From Leptolyngbya sp. KIOST-1 (GTDB lineage: Bacteria; Cyanobacteriota; Cyanobacteriia; Phormidesmidales; Phormidesmidaceae): a DNA stretch of 64,000 bases. Below the pieces are notes generated by a model. That model did not search any database and had not been told where the DNA came from. It saw only the letters and a list, made by a program, of their open reading frames with translations. Shown in pieces: positions 35,870 to 44,905 of this stretch (positions are counted from its first letter, which is position 1; each line of letters begins with the position of its first letter). A program made the translations under genes and the position numbers. The stretch is taken from assembly GCF_000763385.1 (NCBI RefSeq), contig NZ_JQFA01000004.1, positions 1,302,001 to 1,366,000 on the forward strand, written 5' to 3'.

Positions 35870-36163
35870 GATGACGGTAGAAGGGGCGTTGGAGAGTAAA
35901 AACAAGGCTGAAATTTGGTCTGCCCAAGGGTAGTTCAAATTTCAGCGCGTGCACCAGCTTTGGTCAAAAAAGTTTTGTCGCCAGGTCAGTGGGGCTGGTT
36001 ACGACCGACGCAGGGCGATGGGAGGCTGACAAAACCTACCACAGACCGCACCAAGACCAAAGCTGGCCTATAGTTTACGTGTATTATCGAAGATCCGCTA
36101 CTGTCTCACCCGCAGACGCTAGGTCCAGACTCGATCCAGCAACAGGTGGACGAGTACTCGGTT

Positions 36164-36253
36164 GAAGAGAGCGCAAATGAAGAGAGCGCAAATGAAGAGA
36201 GCGCAAATGAAGAGAGCGCAAATGAAGAGAGCGCAAATGAAGAGAGCGCAAAA
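36164..36253. repeat. Six tandem copies of a 15-bp unit
   Basis: GAAGAGAGCGCAAAT is repeated six times without a gap; only the last base of the sixth copy differs. The unit length is a codon multiple, and both strands stay open through the array (plus: EESAN repeats, minus: FALSS repeats). The surrounding interval, 35870-36311, has no other recognised gene. A short plus-strand frame 36083-36271, lacking an ATG, reads IIEDPLLSHPQTLGPDSIQQ before the EESAN units and could be a gene remnant. Confidence 0.9.
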
Positions 36254-36311
36254 GAGGTTATCTTTTTTTGAAAATCCTGGTTAGCAATCCTGGATCTGGC
36301 GTTGACCGCGG

Positions 36312-37088
36312 CTACCCCGTAGCCAGGGCGGCGGCGATCGCCCCACTGTCTGCCACAAACCCAAAGCACTGGTTGACGTTGTATACCGTGGCCTGGGCGC
36401 AGTAGTCGGGGGACGTGGTGGCGCTGCAGTCCCGCAGCAAAATACAGTCGTAGCCAAGGAAATTGGCGTCCTGCAGGGTGGCCATGACACACTGGTCCAC
36501 ATTCACCCCGGCAAACAGCAGGGTGGTTTTACCGAGATTGCGCAGAATGCTATCCAGGGGCGTGTCCCAAAAGCCGCTCATGCGGTACTTATCGACCCAA
36601 ATGTCCTGGGGCTGAGCCTCTAGTTCATCCACCACCGCCGCGGCCCAACTGCCCTTAGTCAGCACCGGGGCACCGTTGGCCGGCAGGGGGTCACCCAGGC
36701 CAACCCCGGTCCCGCTGGGGTTGTAGACGTGCCGCAGCCCGGCGCTGATGTTGAGCAGATCAGGCCGATTGCCCCAGTTCACCCACACCACCGGCACCTG
36801 GGCCGATCGCAGCTGGGGCAGCAGGGTTTGCAGCGGCGGAATCGCCCGCCGAGCCGGGGCGACATCGACCCCAATGCTGGCCAGCCAGCCGTCGGGGTGG
36901 CAAAAGTCGTTCTGCATGTCAATTACCAGACAGGCGGTTTTGCTGAGGTCAAACCGGACCTGCTTGGTATCGGTGGTGAGGTTGGCCAACCGGGGCTGGA
37001 GTTCCTGGCGACTGATGTCGGCGGCTTGTTCGTTGACCCACCAGGCGTTGGGGGGAGTACCGAGGGGCCGCAGGTTGGAGCTATCCAT
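36312..37088 (-). CDS. Isochorismatase-like cysteine hydrolase
   Basis: The 258-residue protein has the family triad: Asp in CLVIDMQNDFCHP (about 62-74), Lys in TKGSWAAAVVDEL (about 140) and Cys in FAGVNVDQCVMATLQDA (about 190). These enzymes hydrolyse amides such as ureidoacrylate, nicotinamide or N-carbamoyl compounds; the substrate here is unknown. ATG 37088 (MDSSNLRPLGTPPNAWWVN) is chosen, since earlier in-frame codons would overlap mraY and are not conserved. It is 29 bases downstream of mraY on the same strand and may be co-transcribed. Confidence 0.85.
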   Translation of the reverse strand: MDSSNLRPLGTPPNAWWVNEQAADISRQELQPRLANLTTDTKQVRFDLSKTACLVIDMQNDFCHPDGWLASIGVDVAPARRAIPPLQTLLPQLRSAQVPVVWVNWGNRPDLLNISAGLRHVYNPSGTGVGLGDPLPANGAPVLTKGSWAAAVVDELEAQPQDIWVDKYRMSGFWDTPLDSILRNLGKTTLLFAGVNVDQCVMATLQDANFLGYDCILLRDCSATTSPDYCAQATVYNVNQCFGFVADSGAIAAALATG

Positions 37089-37117
37089 GGCGAGATATCT
37101 AAGGCTGACCTGACTGG

Positions 37118-38242
37118 CTACCGCAGCTGGAGGGCAATCAGCGCCAGCCCAGTGGTCACGGCATAGGCCACCGCTACCACCTGAGTCTCTGACCAACCCG
37201 ACAGCTCAAAGTGGTGGTGCAGGGGGGCCATTTTGAAGAAGCGCTTGCCCACGCCATCGGGGCCTTTGGTGGCCTTAAAGTAGGCGACCTGAATAATTAC
37301 CGACAGGGTTTCGGCAAAGAACAGCAGGGTGAGCACCAGCAGGGCAAACAGATTGCCGCTGAGAATGCCGACAGCCCCGAGAGCCGCGCCGAGGGCCAGG
37401 GACCCCGTATCGCCCATAAAGACCCGGGCAGGATTGTGGTTGTGCAGCAAAAAGCCTAGACAGGCCCCGGCCATGGCGGCACAGAAGACCATCAGGTCGG
37501 GATGGGTGGGGGCCACAATGGCGGCCAGGCCCATAAATGCGATCGCGCCCGTGCCGCCCATCAGGCCGTCTAGACCGTCGGTGAGGTTGGTGGCATTGCT
37601 CTCGGCCACCAGCACAAACCCAGCCAGGGGCCAGAACAGGAAGCCCAGGGGCAGGCCCAAACCCAGCGGCAGGGCAACGGTGGTGAGCCCGACGGGCTGA
37701 CTGCTGAGCACCCACAGGCAGAAGATCACCGCCAGGGCAATTTGCAGCACCAGCTTGGTGCGGGGGGAAATACCTTTATTAGAGCGACGCTGAATCACCT
37801 GCCAGTCGTCGACCCAGCCGATGGCCCCGTAGGCCAGGGTGAGCAACGAGACCGCCACCGCGTCCGGGGCAAAACCAGTTCCCAACAGGGCTACCAGCAC
37901 TGCAACCGGCACAAAGAAGGCACCACCCATGGTGGGTGTACCCGCTTTCTTCAGGTGGCCCTGGGGGCCTTCCTGGCGAATAAACTGGCCGGTTTTGAGT
38001 GCCCGCAGCAGGGGCACCGCCGAAAACCCGACCAGACTGCTGATCAGGGCCGCGATTAGAAACGGCACTGCGATCGATGCCCCCAGACTCACCGGATTGC
38101 CCAAAAAGCCATCGACGGTGACGGCGGCGGCACTCAGCCCCAAACCCAGCAGCCAAAATAATGTCTGGCCGTTTAGCGACAGCCGCTTCGATGCTAAAAA
38201 CTTCGCATCCACGAACGATTCCTCAATTGCGTCACGCCTCAC
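37118..38242 (-). CDS. mraY: Phospho-N-acetylmuramoyl-pentapeptide-transferase
   Basis: The 374-residue membrane enzyme forms lipid I from UDP-MurNAc-pentapeptide and undecaprenyl phosphate. About ten membrane helices are visible. Signature loops are QEGPQGHLKKAGTPTMGG, GWVDDWQVIQRRSNKG (catalytic Asp pair), NATNLTDGLDGLMGGTG, RVFMGDTGSLALGAALG and MAPLHHHFELSGWSE. The usual cyanobacterial protein has a similar N-terminal extension. It is not in a mur operon here; other cell-wall genes are absent nearby. Confidence 0.97.
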   Translation of the reverse strand: MRRDAIEESFVDAKFLASKRLSLNGQTLFWLLGLGLSAAAVTVDGFLGNPVSLGASIAVPFLIAALISSLVGFSAVPLLRALKTGQFIRQEGPQGHLKKAGTPTMGGAFFVPVAVLVALLGTGFAPDAVAVSLLTLAYGAIGWVDDWQVIQRRSNKGISPRTKLVLQIALAVIFCLWVLSSQPVGLTTVALPLGLGLPLGFLFWPLAGFVLVAESNATNLTDGLDGLMGGTGAIAFMGLAAIVAPTHPDLMVFCAAMAGACLGFLLHNHNPARVFMGDTGSLALGAALGAVGILSGNLFALLVLTLLFFAETLSVIIQVAYFKATKGPDGVGKRFFKMAPLHHHFELSGWSETQVVAVAYAVTTGLALIALQLR

Positions 38243-39812: not shown

Positions 39813-39834
39813 CCACAATTGATGACACGTCCTA
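39809..39834. repeat. R1 terminus remnant joining two convergent stop codons
   Basis: TTTAGCCACAATTGATGACA (39808-39827), followed by CGTCCTAAG, matches the right end of the R1 element at 31114-31141. The fibrillin gene stop (TAG 39810-39812) and the M41 gene stop (TAG on the minus strand, 39834-39832) are both within it. It makes up the whole intergenic space. Confidence 0.7.
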
Positions 39835-40518
39835 AGCCGTCTCCAGGGGCGTGCGGTGCGCCTCGATCAGGGCGCAGCAGTCGGCCACCGACGCGCGATC
39901 GCCCATGGCGATCACCAGCGCGTCGTAGGCGGCGCGGTGCCTGTCCAGCAGGGTTTTGGCCTGGAGCGCAGCCCAGCGCTGCTTGAGGGGAGCTTCGGCG
40001 GGCGATCGCCCCAGGGTCTGCCAGAACAGAGTCAGGGCGGCGGTGTCGTTGCTCCCCCCCTGGGCGTCGCCGTAGATCATCTGCTCGGCGGCAATCCCCG
40101 CCATCCACACCTGGCAGTAGCGATCGATGCTCTGGGGGGTCAGCCCGGCCAGGGCCGCCAAGTCGGTGGGGCCAAACACCACGCCTCCCTGGCCGGGAAT
40201 GCCCTGCTTCCAGGCCTCCCAGGTGTTGAGGGTGTAGGCCTCGATGGGAATATCCAGCAACACCGCTGCCAAAAAGTGCCCCGCCTCGTGGTGCAGCACC
40301 CGCTGGCGGTGTTCAGGGGCCGCCCAGGCCACCGCGTCCATCAAAATATCGCCAATTCGCCCCCCCAGACCCAGCTGATCGAGGCTGAACACCCCCAGCC
40401 CCACGGCGGCAAATACCGCCACCACCGCTGGCGACAGATGGACGATGGGCCCCAGCAGGCTAGCCATGGTCACCCCAAAGATGACCACGGCAATGGTGTT
40501 GAGGGTGGTGTCACGCAT
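39832..40518 (-). CDS. Stand-alone M41-type zinc peptidase domain, membrane-anchored
   Basis: The 228-residue protein begins with two hydrophobic segments (about 8-30 and 31-48). It then has LHHEAGHFLAAVLLD (about 74-88), the HEXXH zinc site of M41 (FtsH) proteases, and the helical M41 region with VWMAGIAAEQMIYGDAQGG. The AAA ATPase module of FtsH is absent, so unfolding must be supplied by others or is not needed. Similar free M41 proteins are common in cyanobacteria. Upstream, on the same strand, is the 1104-residue protein, 114 bases away. Confidence 0.8.
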   Translation of the reverse strand: MRDTTLNTIAVVIFGVTMASLLGPIVHLSPAVVAVFAAVGLGVFSLDQLGLGGRIGDILMDAVAWAAPEHRQRVLHHEAGHFLAAVLLDIPIEAYTLNTWEAWKQGIPGQGGVVFGPTDLAALAGLTPQSIDRYCQVWMAGIAAEQMIYGDAQGGSNDTAALTLFWQTLGRSPAEAPLKQRWAALQAKTLLDRHRAAYDALVIAMGDRASVADCCALIEAHRTPLETA

Positions 40519-40632: not shown

Positions 40633-43600
40633 TCAAAAGATTCCGGCCTCCAGCCGTTTGGCGGTTTGTAGGCTGTCCTGGAGGCGATCGCGGCCCGCCT
40701 CGGAGTGCTCGATGGGCACAGTGTCCAGCAGTGCCGGAAAGACCAGGGCCGTCCAGCCTTCGGCCAGGGGGCAGCGGGTGCTGCCCCGCCGCAGCATCAC
40801 CCGCTGGGTGTCGGCATCCCACACAAAGGCGGTGGCGGCTCCCAGGGCGATCGCGGCGATGTAGGGTTCGGTGGGGCAACTGGCCGGGTCGGCCCCGTTC
40901 AGCGGGGGGGTGCGAAAGCCGGGGCGAGGAGCGGGCTGAAAGGCCACCCGATGGTCGTGGGCCTGCACCCCCAGCCGGGTGGCCTCCACCTGAATTCCCT
41001 CTACCCCCACCACAAACAGCAGGTCGCGGCGAAACTCAGGGTCGGGAAACCCGACGCCCTGGAGCTCGGCAGGCAGGGCGGCACGTTCCACCCCGGCCGC
41101 CAGCAGCGCCCCGGTCAGCAAAATGCGCTGGAAGCCAACGACATCCCACTCGCCGATCAGGCCGTGGACCAGAGCCGCCTGGTACAGCCGGGCCAGGGCC
41201 CGAATCCGGGGGGCATCGGCGACATCGACGGCGATCAGCTCCTGCACGTTGAGGGTTTCCTGGGCATAGGCGCGCAGGGCCGCCTCGCTGCCGCCGTAGA
41301 CCGAGATGTCGGGGGCCTCCCGCAGGTACATGGCCAGGCTGCGGCGAAAGGCGCGGTAGCGTGGGTCAGCGGGGTTGGCGGGGGCAAAAGCCTGGTCCAG
41401 CAGCCGGGCCAGGTGGGCCTGAAACCCCACCGCCTGCTTCAGGGTGGCGCTGACGCCGATGTCTTGATCGGCGGTGACCAGGGCGGCGTAGAACGCCTCG
41501 TGCAGGCTGGCCCCCTGCTGGGCCAGCTGTTCGTAGGCGCGAATATCGGCGGCGATCGCGCCCAGGCGAGCGGCTAGCAGCGGTTCTTTGTCGGCCAGGC
41601 GTTGCCAGAACTGGCGGCTAAAGGCGTGGTCTTTGAGCACGGCGTACCGAATGCGATCGCCCTCTGGCCCTGGGGGAGCGCCGTAGAGCAGCTCCAGCAG
41701 CAGCAGGCGACTGGTCTGATAGGCCACCCCCAGAGGGTAGCCCGCTTTCTCCTGCCGGGAGACCATCACCGACAGCGTGTTGCCGCCGTTGAGCTGACTC
41801 GCGCCGCCGGGAAACAGGCGCTGCCCCATACCCACGCTGGCCCAGTCGCGATCGCCGAACTGCAGCAGGGCAAAGTCCAGCCGGGAGCGCTCCTCGGCGA
41901 TCAACCGCTCCAGCCTGCCCGTGACAGTCGTTCTGAGGGCGTGCTTATCCCGCTCGTTTTGCTCGATCGCGGCCGCCAGCGATCGCAGCGGGGCCGGGTA
42001 GATGCCGTCGCCCTCAAACCGCATCATGCCCAGGGCCAGGGCGATCGCCCCCTCCTCGGCCCCAAAGGTGACATTGGGAATTTTTGACATCAGCTCGGGG
42101 GTGCTCGACAGCTGCCGACTCTCCAGGGAGGTGGAGGACTCCAGCTGTCTCAGCACCGCCAAACGCGCCAGCTGCCCGGTTGGCCCCGACCGGGCCAGCA
42201 GCGGACGGGTGAGCAACTGCTGCATGGACAGCAGCTGCTCGCCCGCCCAAAACGAGCCCACGGTGCCCGCCCCAGCCGTGATGGGGCGGGCATCGGGGTG
42301 GCGCAGCAGGGGGTCGTGCAGGGTGCGCAGGGAGTGGTCAAGCATCCACAGGGCCTCGCCGGGGTCGAGCCCCGCCGCCCGGCTCGACTCGGCGTAGACC
42401 GGCACAAAATAGTTTAGAAAGAAGCGATTGGTGTCGAAGCGGCCGCCCTGACGGTAGGCCAGCAGCTTGTCCTGGGCCAGGTCGGCGGCGATCGCGGTGA
42501 CGTAGGGGCTGGTCTGCAAAAACCAGAAAAACTTGCGATCGAGGGCCGGACGCAGGGCGCTGCCCAGCACCCCGCTGGCCCGCTGGTAGGCGGCCTCCGA
42601 AAGGGGGGGAACTACAGTGCCATCGCTGAGGGTAAACCAGGCCCCATCGGCCTCAAAGCGGTAGGTAGCTCCCTCAATCGGCGCGATCCAGTCGCGGGTG
42701 GGCAGCCCCTGGGCCTGCATCCCCAGGGTCACCGCCACCAGACCGGGGTCGATCGGCAACTGCCCCGGGGGCAACAGGGCTGGGTCGGGCTGAATCTCGA
42801 GGCTGGGCTCTCGCAGCGTGCCCGTCAGCCGGGCCTGCCACTGCCAGGGCTGGCCGGGGTCGACGGGCAGGCGATCGCCCAGCAGCGGCTGCAGATCGGC
42901 GGCGGCGATCGGCGGCACCTGGGCCGTCAGGTCGTAGCCGGTTTCAGGGTCTACGTGGCCTGCCGCCTGTAGGGTCAGCGGCCCGACCTGCAGCTCGGTG
43001 TCGGCCAGGGCCACCCGCTGGCCCTGAAATGCCACGGTGCTCTGGATTCGCTCCACGGGCGTGATCAGCTGCCCCAGCTGAGTCGGGCCGACCTGCAGCG
43101 TCACCTGCCCCTGGAGATCGAGGCCGGGTTCGGCAACCGTGCTGGCGAGGGGAGCCGTCAGCCGCAGGTCGCTGTCGAGGGTGCCAGCCTGGAGGGCGAT
43201 CGCCGTCGGCAGCAGGGCATTGAGGCTGGTCAGGGGCAGGTTCTGGGTGTGCAGATCCGCCTGGAGCGATCGCCGGGCCAGATCGACGGTGCCGCTGGTG
43301 TGCAGGTGCCCCTGCTCAATCTGGCCGGTCAGGGCAAACGTCACCGGCGGCGGCTGGGGAACCCCAGGCTCCCCTCCCCGGCGAACGGTGGCCTGCACTG
43401 CCTGGAGGGCGATCGCCACCTCCCGAGCCGAGCCACTCCCGGCGGTCAGGGTGAACCGACCGTCTTCAATTTGAAAGGCCTCTACCGTTACCCGCCGTCG
43501 GGCTGTAGCCTCTTCCTGCGGTTCCCAGGGCCAGCTCAGCCAGCTGCCCTCCTCCGGCAGCGCGATCGCCAGGTCGGGCCGCACCAGGGTGACAGCCCCC

Positions 43601-43947
43601 CGCACCTCGCCCCGGTGCAGCAGGGCTGGCCAGTCCAGCGAAATGGCCATGGCCTCGATCTGCCCGGTCAGCCCCCCGGTGTCTCCCCCCGGCAGCACCG
43701 TTTTGCCCAACACCACGCCCCCCGCCGCCAACCCGGTGACGCCCCCCAGCTGAACAGGCTGCTGAAGACGGTTGGCGATCGCCGTCTCCAGCCCAGCGTG
43801 CAGGGACTTCAGGCCCAGGCCTGCCGCTACCACCAGGCCCACCAGCGTCCAGGGCATGGCTTCCTTGGCCACCCGCCTGACCCCCGCCGTTGACCTGGTC
43901 CTGTGCCTGGACAGGTACTGTGAAACTTTTTGCCGCACAAGAGCCAT
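40633..43947 (-). CDS. Large AsmA/TamB-like protein with unrecognised C-terminal half
   Basis: This 1104-residue protein has one membrane helix (about 32-50, MPWTLVGLVVAAGLGL). Residues about 55-425 look like the repetitive beta-groove of AsmA/TamB/DUF748 proteins, with IEAMAISLDWPALLHRGEVR, ALTGQIEQGHLHTSGTVDL and LDLQGQVTLQVGPTQLG, which move lipids across the periplasm. From about residue 440 to the end the sequence is mostly helical and not recognised (for example SEAAYQRASGVLGSAL, WMLDHSLRTLHDPLLRHPD, VMLRRGSTRCPLAEGWTALV). No catalytic motif is obvious. Compared with cyanobacterial TamB it is shorter and ends differently. Cell-envelope lipid function is inference. Confidence 0.6.
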   Translation of the reverse strand: MALVRQKVSQYLSRHRTRSTAGVRRVAKEAMPWTLVGLVVAAGLGLKSLHAGLETAIANRLQQPVQLGGVTGLAAGGVVLGKTVLPGGDTGGLTGQIEAMAISLDWPALLHRGEVRGAVTLVRPDLAIALPEEGSWLSWPWEPQEEATARRRVTVEAFQIEDGRFTLTAGSGSAREVAIALQAVQATVRRGGEPGVPQPPPVTFALTGQIEQGHLHTSGTVDLARRSLQADLHTQNLPLTSLNALLPTAIALQAGTLDSDLRLTAPLASTVAEPGLDLQGQVTLQVGPTQLGQLITPVERIQSTVAFQGQRVALADTELQVGPLTLQAAGHVDPETGYDLTAQVPPIAAADLQPLLGDRLPVDPGQPWQWQARLTGTLREPSLEIQPDPALLPPGQLPIDPGLVAVTLGMQAQGLPTRDWIAPIEGATYRFEADGAWFTLSDGTVVPPLSEAAYQRASGVLGSALRPALDRKFFWFLQTSPYVTAIAADLAQDKLLAYRQGGRFDTNRFFLNYFVPVYAESSRAAGLDPGEALWMLDHSLRTLHDPLLRHPDARPITAGAGTVGSFWAGEQLLSMQQLLTRPLLARSGPTGQLARLAVLRQLESSTSLESRQLSSTPELMSKIPNVTFGAEEGAIALALGMMRFEGDGIYPAPLRSLAAAIEQNERDKHALRTTVTGRLERLIAEERSRLDFALLQFGDRDWASVGMGQRLFPGGASQLNGGNTLSVMVSRQEKAGYPLGVAYQTSRLLLLELLYGAPPGPEGDRIRYAVLKDHAFSRQFWQRLADKEPLLAARLGAIAADIRAYEQLAQQGASLHEAFYAALVTADQDIGVSATLKQAVGFQAHLARLLDQAFAPANPADPRYRAFRRSLAMYLREAPDISVYGGSEAALRAYAQETLNVQELIAVDVADAPRIRALARLYQAALVHGLIGEWDVVGFQRILLTGALLAAGVERAALPAELQGVGFPDPEFRRDLLFVVGVEGIQVEATRLGVQAHDHRVAFQPAPRPGFRTPPLNGADPASCPTEPYIAAIALGAATAFVWDADTQRVMLRRGSTRCPLAEGWTALVFPALLDTVPIEHSEAGRDRLQDSLQTAKRLEAGIF

Positions 43948-43976
43948 GGACGTAATACCAAGTCAGCGGTTGCTGG

Positions 43977-44086
43977 GGGCTGTCAGCAGTTAGTGGCCAG
44001 ACGTAGCGGCTAAACGTTCACAAATCATGGGTTGTAGCCCCTAGCCGGTTTTTTGGGGCCGGGTGTGGTCGGCTCTGACCATCCTA
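43977..44086. repeat. R1 partial copy upstream of the 1104-residue gene
   Basis: The sequence begins GGGCTGTCAGCAGTTAG, continues with GGGTTGTAGCCCCTAGCC and CGGGTGTGG, and aligns in the same order with the first hundred bases of the 31016-31137 element. The right end appears shortened (TGACCATCCTAG, ending at CTAG 44083-44086). It lies between the start of the 1104-residue gene and the VanY-like gene end. Confidence 0.65.
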
Positions 44087-44098
44087 GGCTGGTTCAGA

Positions 44099-44905
44099 TC
44101 AATTGCTGTAAAAGATTTCCAAACTGGTGCGATCGCCCACAAAGCGCCAGTGCCAGGGTTCAAAGGCCACCCCCTGAAAATTGTCCGGCGGGAAGGAAAT
44201 TTCGTAGCCGTAGCGCACGGCATTGGTTTCGAGCCACTGGTAGGCTCGGGTATCGACAAAGGTGGTGTCGAGGTGGGTGCCCAACTGGTTGCCATCGCCA
44301 ATGTCGATGGCGTAGCCGGTGTGGTGCTCGCTGTAGCCCGGTGGGGCACTGACCTCGGCCCGGGTTTGGGCATCCTGGCCCCGCTGGGCCTTGAGGTTAA
44401 AGAAAATTTGCTCCTGCTCCGCCTGGGAGCGAAACCCCGACAGCGGCACCAGCCGTATCCCCTGGCGGGCGGCGGCCTGGGTCATGGCTTCGTACTGGGC
44501 GGCGGCGGCGGTGCGCAGGCGAATGCTGACGTTGTTCGACAGGGGCACCAGATCGTCGACCGGGGCTTCGCTAAAGGCCCGGTGGTTGAGCAGGGTGCGG
44601 CTGGAGGGGGCCAGCCGGGTAGCCACGTCGCGACTGGGGTTGAGCGGAGCTTCCCCACCGCTGGCGGCTACGCCTGGGCTCACCTCCGTTCCGGAAATCA
44701 TGCCCTCAAAGGGCCGGGCAAACTCGGCGGCAGAAAACCCGCCGGTCTGATACCAGGCCACCAGCCCCCCCGCCGCCAGCGCCAGCAGCGCCAGCCCCAC
44801 AAACCGACGCAGCATCCGGGTGCGTCGCAGCCAGGAGGGCTCGGCCTCAGCCGAGTAAAGGGGCACATCGCGGGCCGCCTGGGGAATATCGTCGAAGGGA
44901 GACAT
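44099..44905 (-). CDS. D-alanyl-D-alanine carboxypeptidase, VanY/M15B type
   Basis: The 268-residue protein has one N-terminal membrane anchor (about 35-53, GLALLALAAGGLVAWY) and a C-terminal M15 domain (about 135-262). Zinc motifs are GYSEHHTGYAIDIGD (about 205) and FEPWHWRFVGD (about 248), with LSGFRSQAEQ before them. Such periplasmic enzymes trim terminal D-alanine from peptidoglycan peptides. It is on the same strand as the 1104-residue gene, separated by the R1 repeat, and divergent from the AEC transporter gene. Confidence 0.9.
   Translation of the reverse strand: MSPFDDIPQAARDVPLYSAEAEPSWLRRTRMLRRFVGLALLALAAGGLVAWYQTGGFSAAEFARPFEGMISGTEVSPGVAASGGEAPLNPSRDVATRLAPSSRTLLNHRAFSEAPVDDLVPLSNNVSIRLRTAAAAQYEAMTQAAARQGIRLVPLSGFRSQAEQEQIFFNLKAQRGQDAQTRAEVSAPPGYSEHHTGYAIDIGDGNQLGTHLDTTFVDTRAYQWLETNAVRYGYEISFPPDNFQGVAFEPWHWRFVGDRTSLEIFYSN

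What the first reader, a model, noticed from the sequence alone, without database searches (positions are those of the whole stretch)
40633..43947. AsmA/TamB-like N-terminus fused to a 650-residue unknown domain
The N-terminal beta-repeat part looks like lipid-transfer proteins of the envelope, but the long helical C-terminal half could not be connected with any family from memory. It has protein-like composition and well-spaced hydrophobic positions. It may be a new cyanobacterial envelope module; it neighbours a VanY carboxypeptidase and a membrane M41 protease on the same strand.
Basis: inference. Interest (0 to 1): 0.65.

Follow-up and report, generated by a model that had tools for sequence, protein, structure and literature searches.

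The report
Cyanobacterial envelope protein with swappable front
This cyanobacterial envelope protein joins the front of a lipid-transport-type protein (TamB) to a large helical domain of no known family, and related species have exchanged the front part while keeping the back part.

Summary
The 1104-aa ORF is real and conserved. Residues ~33-61 look like a membrane anchor. Residues ~53-383 are homologous to the N-termini of the organism's own three full-length TamB proteins, but TamB's C-terminal domain is missing. Residues ~417-1104 are a mostly helical domain without a match in Pfam, NCBIfam, PHROGs, PADLOC or, by sequence profile or Foldseek, the PDB. The same domain occurs as a separate ~840-aa protein with a signal-like start in sister genera: 28 of 63 genomes of the order have it, one copy each (17 fused, 11 stand-alone); in the class 26 of 388 genomes, 3 of 159 genera, one family.

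(1) VanY and M41 stand side by side without this gene in 10 of 17 genomes examined, so the neighbours say little about function. (2) The N-half, with its upstream DNA, behaves as an exchangeable cassette ending at residues ~411-416, the domain junction. In the pair L040/L041 flanks and C-half differ at dS 0.27-0.49, the N-half at 1.65; trees of the two halves reject each other's clades. One N-type goes with a small SH3-like gene (6 of 7 genomes against 0 of 8).

Lipid handling by the N-half is inferred; the helical domain's activity is unknown.

The parts
40633..43947 (-). fused gene, 1104 aa
   Evidence: open frame; 17 fused among 63 genomes of the order, this one included
43765..43851 (-). 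probable N-terminal membrane anchor, residues 33-61
   Evidence: hydrophobic stretch, KD 1.65 at residue 35; helix 33-61 in a model that is below pLDDT 50 there up to residue 49
42763..43764 (-). TamB N-terminus-like beta part, residues 62-395; the variable half
   Evidence: BLASTP residues 53-383 to own TamB L073, E 6e-33; beta strands in the model; median pairwise identity 0.45, dN 0.51 for residues 62-400
42700..42717 (-). junction, residues ~411-416, where the exchanged segment ends
   Evidence: identity jump and per-codon differences
40636..42699 (-). constant helical orphan domain, residues 417-1104
   Evidence: 27-30% identity to stand-alone ~840-aa proteins, E down to 9.7e-63; no family match; model pTM 0.74
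43948..44098 (-). 5' intergenic region (151 bp), co-segregates with the N-type; 37-1181 bp in the 11 loci measured
   Evidence: gap lengths and leader comparison
44099..44905 (-). upstream neighbour: VanY-type carboxypeptidase (not part of the module)
   Evidence: Pfam VanY 6e-43; next to M41 without the fused gene elsewhere
39832..40518 (-). downstream neighbour: short M41-like protein, no AAA domain in the Pfam listing
   Evidence: Pfam Peptidase_M41 E 0.0027, below cut-off

Best explanation
A chimeric envelope protein. Shown: the first ~330 residues of a TamB-type protein, with a likely TM anchor and without TamB's C-terminal domain, followed by a ~690-residue helical domain that also exists as a free protein with a signal-like start. 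Shown: the N-half has been exchanged between lineages, ending at the domain junction, while the helical half and the flanking genes were inherited together; the upstream DNA co-segregates with the N-type. Inferred: the N-half is a short inner-membrane-anchored hydrophobic groove that collects a lipid or lipid-linked cargo, or docks to a membrane partner, and presents it to the periplasmic helical domain, the constant working part. The N-half would set cargo or partner and the upstream part its expression; one N-type has a small secreted SH3-like protein as a likely partner.
For: N-half homology to three own TamBs that carry PF04357. C-domain alone in relatives, with hydrophobic N-terminal stretches. 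One copy per genome and never both forms in 28 of 28 positives. Exchange: L040 vs L041 dS malQ 0.43, VanY 0.30, C 0.49, M41 0.27, MraY 0.32, but N-half 1.65; all 8 pairs of L036/L038/L040/L046 with L039/L041 show the same step (N 1.27-1.86, C 0.46-0.59). A full-length TamB in the L040/L041 genomes: N-part dS 0.36, identity 93%. N tree: type II a clade at 98/97, and the 8-row clade of the C tree (98/99 there) is rejected, p-AU 5e-81; the C tree rejects type II as a clade, p 0.004. The flank tree needs 4 type changes, 3 forced by well-supported branches, and rejects its five type II rows as a clade, p 5e-43. SH3-like orthologue in 6 of 7 type II and 0 of 8 type I genomes. AsmA-like proteins are proposed phospholipid transporters (PMC8593681, abstract); Chorein-N domains are predicted in AsmA/TamB (PMC6791001, abstract).
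Against: No lipid binding is shown; homology alone carries that step. The N-half model is poor (block pLDDT ~30-80), and Foldseek found nothing at E<=0.001 for the full model. TamB's C-terminal domain and most of its length are absent. dN/dS of the N-half is below 1 in all pairs, so diversifying selection is not shown. N-half dS is also raised within types (median N/C ratio 1.41 within type I, 1.65 within type II, 1.71 between types), so a high ratio alone does not prove exchange; saturation may inflate it. TamB N-parts too evolve faster than the rest in most distant pairs, though less. The AU groups were named after the dS table had been seen. Of the 7 type II genomes, G022 lacks the close SH3-like orthologue, in G021 it is interrupted, and in G036 it lies on another contig than the full gene.
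Confidence: 0.4

Rival explanations
1. The TamB-like part is only a membrane anchor and spacer. It drifts and is exchanged by ordinary homologous recombination because little depends on its sequence; the helical domain does all the work, as the stand-alone form suggests.
For: Stand-alone forms exist without it; N-half dN/dS 0.38 against 0.165 for the C-part.
Against: Two deep N-types are kept (type II 98/97, type I 87/85 in the N tree) and one goes with a specific small gene; length is preserved in the alignment.
Confidence: 0.3
2. A conflict locus: the N-half is exposed to a phage, bacteriocin or rival-derived factor at the inner membrane, and exchange of whole cassettes keeps variants in circulation.
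For: At least 3 type switches forced by well-supported branches at a fixed locus; breakpoint at the domain edge; very uneven dN between halves.
Against: No PADLOC match in the 5 proteins scanned (neighbours were not scanned), no relatives in viral contigs, no dN/dS above 1; the identified neighbours are housekeeping-type genes.
Confidence: 0.15
3. A peptidoglycan-linked unit with VanY and the M41 protease.
For: M41 next downstream in 13 of 14 fused loci of one collection; VanY upstream in 10 of 14, in some with a small gene between; same strand.
Against: VanY-M41 adjacency occurs without the gene in 10 of 17 genomes examined; G034 and G038 keep the fused gene elsewhere; 8 stand-alone loci show none of the window's neighbours within the flanks held.
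Confidence: 0.08
4. Artefact: chimeric assemblies or misaligned N-halves.
For: Several loci come from draft or metagenome assemblies; in G024 the N-half is split over two frames.
Against: The types appear in several independent assemblies, among them Nodosilinea nodulosa PCC 7104 and FACHB and LEGE strains; both types align at roughly 30-58% identity along the N-half, except one poor stretch near residues 107-212; the TamB control in the same genomes is normal.
Confidence: 0.03

Closest known systems
TamB (PF04357) / AsmA-like clan
   Same: anchor and the first ~330 residues, homologous to three own TamBs
   Different: the remaining length and the TamB C-terminal domain are missing; an unrelated ~690-residue helical domain stands there instead
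DUF748 (PF05359) and YhdP (PF13116)
   Same: weak profile matches in the N-half (E 1.9e-8 and 0.016, both below cut-off)
   Different: own full-length TamBs show weak matches of the same kind (YhdP in 3 of 3, DUF748 in 2 of 3), so this is clan-level similarity
Stand-alone ~840-aa protein of Halomicronema-type relatives (unnamed)
   Same: same helical domain, 27-30% identity over ~600 residues
   Different: no TamB part, signal-like N-terminus, other genomic place
Bacterial SH3 (SH3_3, PF08239) proteins
   Same: the small gene beside type II N-halves has longer paralogues whose second half matches SH3_3 in 2 of 3 tested
   Different: 0 of 4 of the small proteins match Pfam at E<=1; they correspond to the first half of the paralogues

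Membership tests
TamB | C-terminal TamB domain PF04357 | tested here: not met
   no match in the focal protein; 3 of 3 own TamBs match at E 4e-35 to 1e-42
TamB | N-terminal part homologous to TamB N-termini | tested here: met
   residues 53-383 to L073 87-419, 29%, E 6e-33; also L074 and L075
AsmA-like clan | N-terminal inner-membrane anchor | tested here: met
   hydrophobic segment at residues ~35-53, KD 1.65; helix 33-61 predicted at low confidence
AsmA-like clan | Pfam clan model above curated cut-off | tested here: not met
   DUF748 33.3 bits against 50; YhdP 13.6 against 46; AsmA 10.2 against 29.8; the own TamBs also stay below these cut-offs
AsmA-like clan | beta groove with hydrophobic lining / Chorein-N fold | tested here: inconclusive
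   beta strands predicted at 70-386 but low pLDDT; no Foldseek match at E<=0.001
AsmA-like clan | lipid transfer between membranes | not testable with these tools
   needs biochemistry
Bacterial SH3 (small partner gene) | match to SH3_3 | tested here: not met
   0 of 4 small proteins; 2 of 3 longer paralogues match, in their other half
any known family for residues 417-1104 | sequence profile match | tested here: not met
   Pfam on 23 members, best E 0.026, no family in more than 4; NCBIfam, PHROGs (best E 0.0036 for one relative over 24 residues), PADLOC, PDB profile search none at E<=10; single-sequence PDB search best E 0.16
any known fold for residues 417-1104 | structural match | tested here: inconclusive
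   Foldseek PDB and BFVD: 0 matches at E<=0.001; VIA best Z 7.6, mainly on one long-helix region; model partly low confidence

The most novel reading that the evidence does not exclude
A module-swapping envelope locus: a constant, lineage-restricted helical periplasmic domain carries exchangeable TamB-derived membrane heads. Head, upstream region and, in one type, a small secreted partner gene move together by recombination at the domain edge, so related cyanobacteria refit the same periplasmic machine with different lipid or partner specificity. No such exchange of an AsmA/TamB-type head was described in the titles and abstract starts listed by four paper searches.
Probability: 0.3. Interest if true: 0.75.

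Novelty: new variant of a known kind. Interest (0 to 1): 0.55.

Why it matters
How AsmA/TamB-like proteins choose cargo and partners is, to my knowledge, open. A natural series of close relatives with the same back half and different TamB-type front halves is a ready-made swap experiment. The helical domain is a family with no described member in the libraries searched, existing both fused and free, which makes 'what does it gain from a TamB head' directly testable.

Tried and rejected
Functional unit with VanY/M41: rejected as the main reading because the pair stands without the gene in 10 of 17 genomes (gaps of about 30 to 450 bp between the matches) and the conserved block is much longer.

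Known family or fold for the C-half: Pfam, NCBIfam, PHROGs, PADLOC, PDB sequences, Foldseek PDB and BFVD, VIA-align, all without a credible match. The VIA list (best Z 7.6) covers mainly model residues 244-427, long helices, where such Z values are common; I draw nothing from it.

Viral origin: 28 pattern matches, none a relative.

A decayed copy of the gene in the empty VanY-M41 site of G028 (449-bp gap): the loose search against 33 loci gave nothing below E 0.49, and no hit in G028's two loci.

Positive selection on the N-half: not shown, dN/dS below 1 in all pairs (largest 0.66).

Conserved neighbours of the stand-alone genes: in 7 stand-alone loci listed I recognised by eye no shared neighbours except between the close pair L050/L055; no profile search of them was run.

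Promoter scan: nothing in 43948-44098.

Class-wide search with the long profile scored only 2 candidates per genome; the shorter profile scored up to 8, and all candidates in the order.

A wrong test of my own: I held together four type II rows of the flank tree and left the fifth (L037) among the others. That p-value (0.001) is not used; one search repeats the test with all five.

Rows left out: L034 and L037 (N-half incomplete or split) from the N/C trees, their N-types assigned separately; L042 and L045 (no MraY on the stretch) from the flank tree; L054 (partial) from the first C tree; the dS table has 12 of the fused genes.

Full report
OBSERVATION. The ORF 40633-43947 (-) codes for 1104 aa. 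It is conserved: one search found the fused form in 17 of 63 genomes of the order (this one included), all of one genus group. Relatives named are Nodosilinea and other filamentous cyanobacteria. The start MAL[VA]RQ is shared with near relatives, which supports the start chosen.

N-HALF. Pfam gives DUF748 (E 1.9e-8, 33.3 bits against a cut-off of 50) and weaker YhdP and AsmA matches. Residues 53-383 align with the N-terminus of an own-genome protein of 1726 aa at 29%, E 6e-33; two more, of 1659 and 1827 aa, match too. All three carry the C-terminal TamB domain PF04357; the focal protein does not. The full-length model has a helix at 33-61 and beta strands at 70-386, at low confidence (mean pLDDT 65 for the whole). 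So the front is a truncated TamB-type head. Chorein-N domains are predicted in AsmA and TamB (PMC6791001, abstract and section list), and YhdP, TamB and YdbH are proposed phospholipid transporters (PMC8593681, abstract and section list). That the focal head binds lipid is inference.

C-HALF. Residues ~413-1024 match separate proteins of ~830-846 aa at 27-30% identity, E down to 9.7e-63. These begin with a hydrophobic signal-like stretch (best KD 1.15-2.17 in 10 proteins; cleavage not tested). In an alignment of 23 rows of both forms 51 columns are invariant. No family matches: NCBIfam, PHROGs, Pfam over 23 members, PDB sequence profile, PADLOC. The model is mostly helical (pTM 0.74) and Foldseek finds nothing at E<=0.001 in PDB or BFVD. 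A fold match of a part is not excluded.

DISTRIBUTION. With a short profile, 26 of 388 genomes of the class (3 of 159 genera, all positives in the window's family) and 28 of 63 of the order have the domain, one match each. Of the 28, 17 are fused and 11 stand-alone (G002-G009, G029 partial, G037, G042); none has both. The tree of 25 C-domains splits into fused and stand-alone at 100/100 with a long branch between, so the two forms are old and the exclusivity may reflect replacement. It is not independent of phylogeny.

NEIGHBOURS. In one collection M41 is next downstream in 13 of 14 fused loci and VanY upstream in 10 of 14; of the other four, two are cut by the contig end, one (L042) has other DNA upstream, and one (L047) has neither. 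MraY and malQ are conserved in the same block where the locus is long enough: MraY in 11, malQ in 8 of 14. In 17 genomes probed for VanY and M41, the two are side by side without the fused gene in 10 (G042, G037, G029, G039, G028, G002, G005, G007, G008, G054). In G034 and G038 the fused gene lies elsewhere. The simplest reading is that the gene entered an older pair.

CASSETTE EXCHANGE. Over 91 pairs of fused genes the N-part (62-400) has median identity 0.45 and dN 0.51, the C-part (413-980) 0.81 and 0.12. More telling is dS at constant flanks. For L040/L041: malQ 0.43, VanY 0.30, N-half 1.65, C-half 0.49, M41 0.27, MraY 0.32. For L038/L039: N 1.32, C 0.47, M41 0.25, MraY 0.39. For L035/L044: VanY 0.36, N 1.16, C 0.56, M41 0.45, MraY 0.41. 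In L036/L046 all six values are 0.23-0.30. Over the pairs of 12 genes, median dS is 1.14 for the N-half against 0.55-0.69 for the C-half and four flanking genes. Against this: the N/C ratio of dS is raised within types too (median 1.41 and 1.65, at most 2.06, against 1.71 between types, at most 3.50). Control: a full-length TamB in the L040/L041 genomes has dS 0.36 in its N-part and in the rest, 93-94% identity; in distant pairs its N-part also evolves somewhat faster. The identity step lies at residues ~411-418.

TREES. With 17 rows, the N-half tree joins six 'type II' rows (L039, L041-L045) at 98/97. The C-half tree instead joins L036, L038, L039, L040, L041, L046, L006 and L007 at 98/99. 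Each tree rejects the other's clade (p-AU 5e-81 for the 8 rows in N; 0.004 for type II in C). The flank tree (VanY+M41+MraY, 11 rows) agrees with the C-half: the six of those eight rows present are a clade at 100/99, and 4 type changes are needed, 3 forced by well-supported branches; its five type II rows as one clade are rejected, p 5e-43 (which replaces a faulty test). The groups were named after seeing the dS table, so the p-values are post hoc.

UPSTREAM PART. Six type I loci have 37-290 bp between VanY and the start (the window 151); five type II loci 369-1181 bp. Type II loci share a ~60-75-bp leader just before the start at 85-93% in the pairs found (L037, L041, L043, L044), and a ~500-bp segment at 71-82% in L037, L041, L044 and L045. 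That segment holds a divergent gene for a small protein with a signal-like start (132-137 aa in L037, L041 and G036, 163 aa from the first start codon in L039). By my own arithmetic the one-sided Fisher p is 0.0014, not corrected for kinship. L047 (= G034), outside both types, has a distant version beside its fused gene. Longer paralogues carry SH3_3 in their other half (2 of 3); the small protein has no Pfam match, so 'SH3-like' is inference. In G036 the leader and first ~29 codons are present twice, a 179-bp stretch at 91% identity, one copy beside VanY and the small gene, the other on the full gene.

MECHANISM. Shown: chimera, constant back, exchanged front. Inferred: the front is a short anchored groove or docking part whose cargo or partner varies, the back a periplasmic helical worker. 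The plain-anchor reading is nearly as likely. A conflict-driven reading has no direct support.

NOVELTY. Not a TamB (defining domain absent). The C-domain is an undescribed family as far as the libraries searched go, and exchange of a TamB-type head was not seen in the listings; of papers I read two abstracts with section lists. I rate it a new variant of a known kind.

Noticed in passing
L041:5849-6262, L037:5509-5910, L039:182-673, L047:5803-6210: Small SH3-like gene with a signal-like start, divergent from the fused gene; close orthologues in 6 of 7 type II genomes and 0 of 8 type I genomes.
   Followed up: partly
L166:2671-2848 and L042:6708-6885: In G036 the leader and first ~29 codons of the fused gene are duplicated (179 bp, 91%), one copy beside VanY and the small gene: perhaps a recombination scar at the 5' edge of the cassette.
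   Followed up: partly
39832-40518: Short M41-like protein with an HEAGH motif and no AAA domain in the Pfam listing, next to VanY in 10 of 17 relatives probed.
   Followed up: partly
L037:6492-7700: In G024 the N-half of the fused gene is split over two reading frames: a decayed gene or a sequencing error.
   Followed up: no
36106-36492: Run of near-identical short units (SFALS in translation) in an ORF overlapping the gene at 36312-37196.
   Followed up: no
G000:C2 at 806908, 2518010 and 2793996: Three full-length TamB genes in one genome, all with PF04357.
   Followed up: yes
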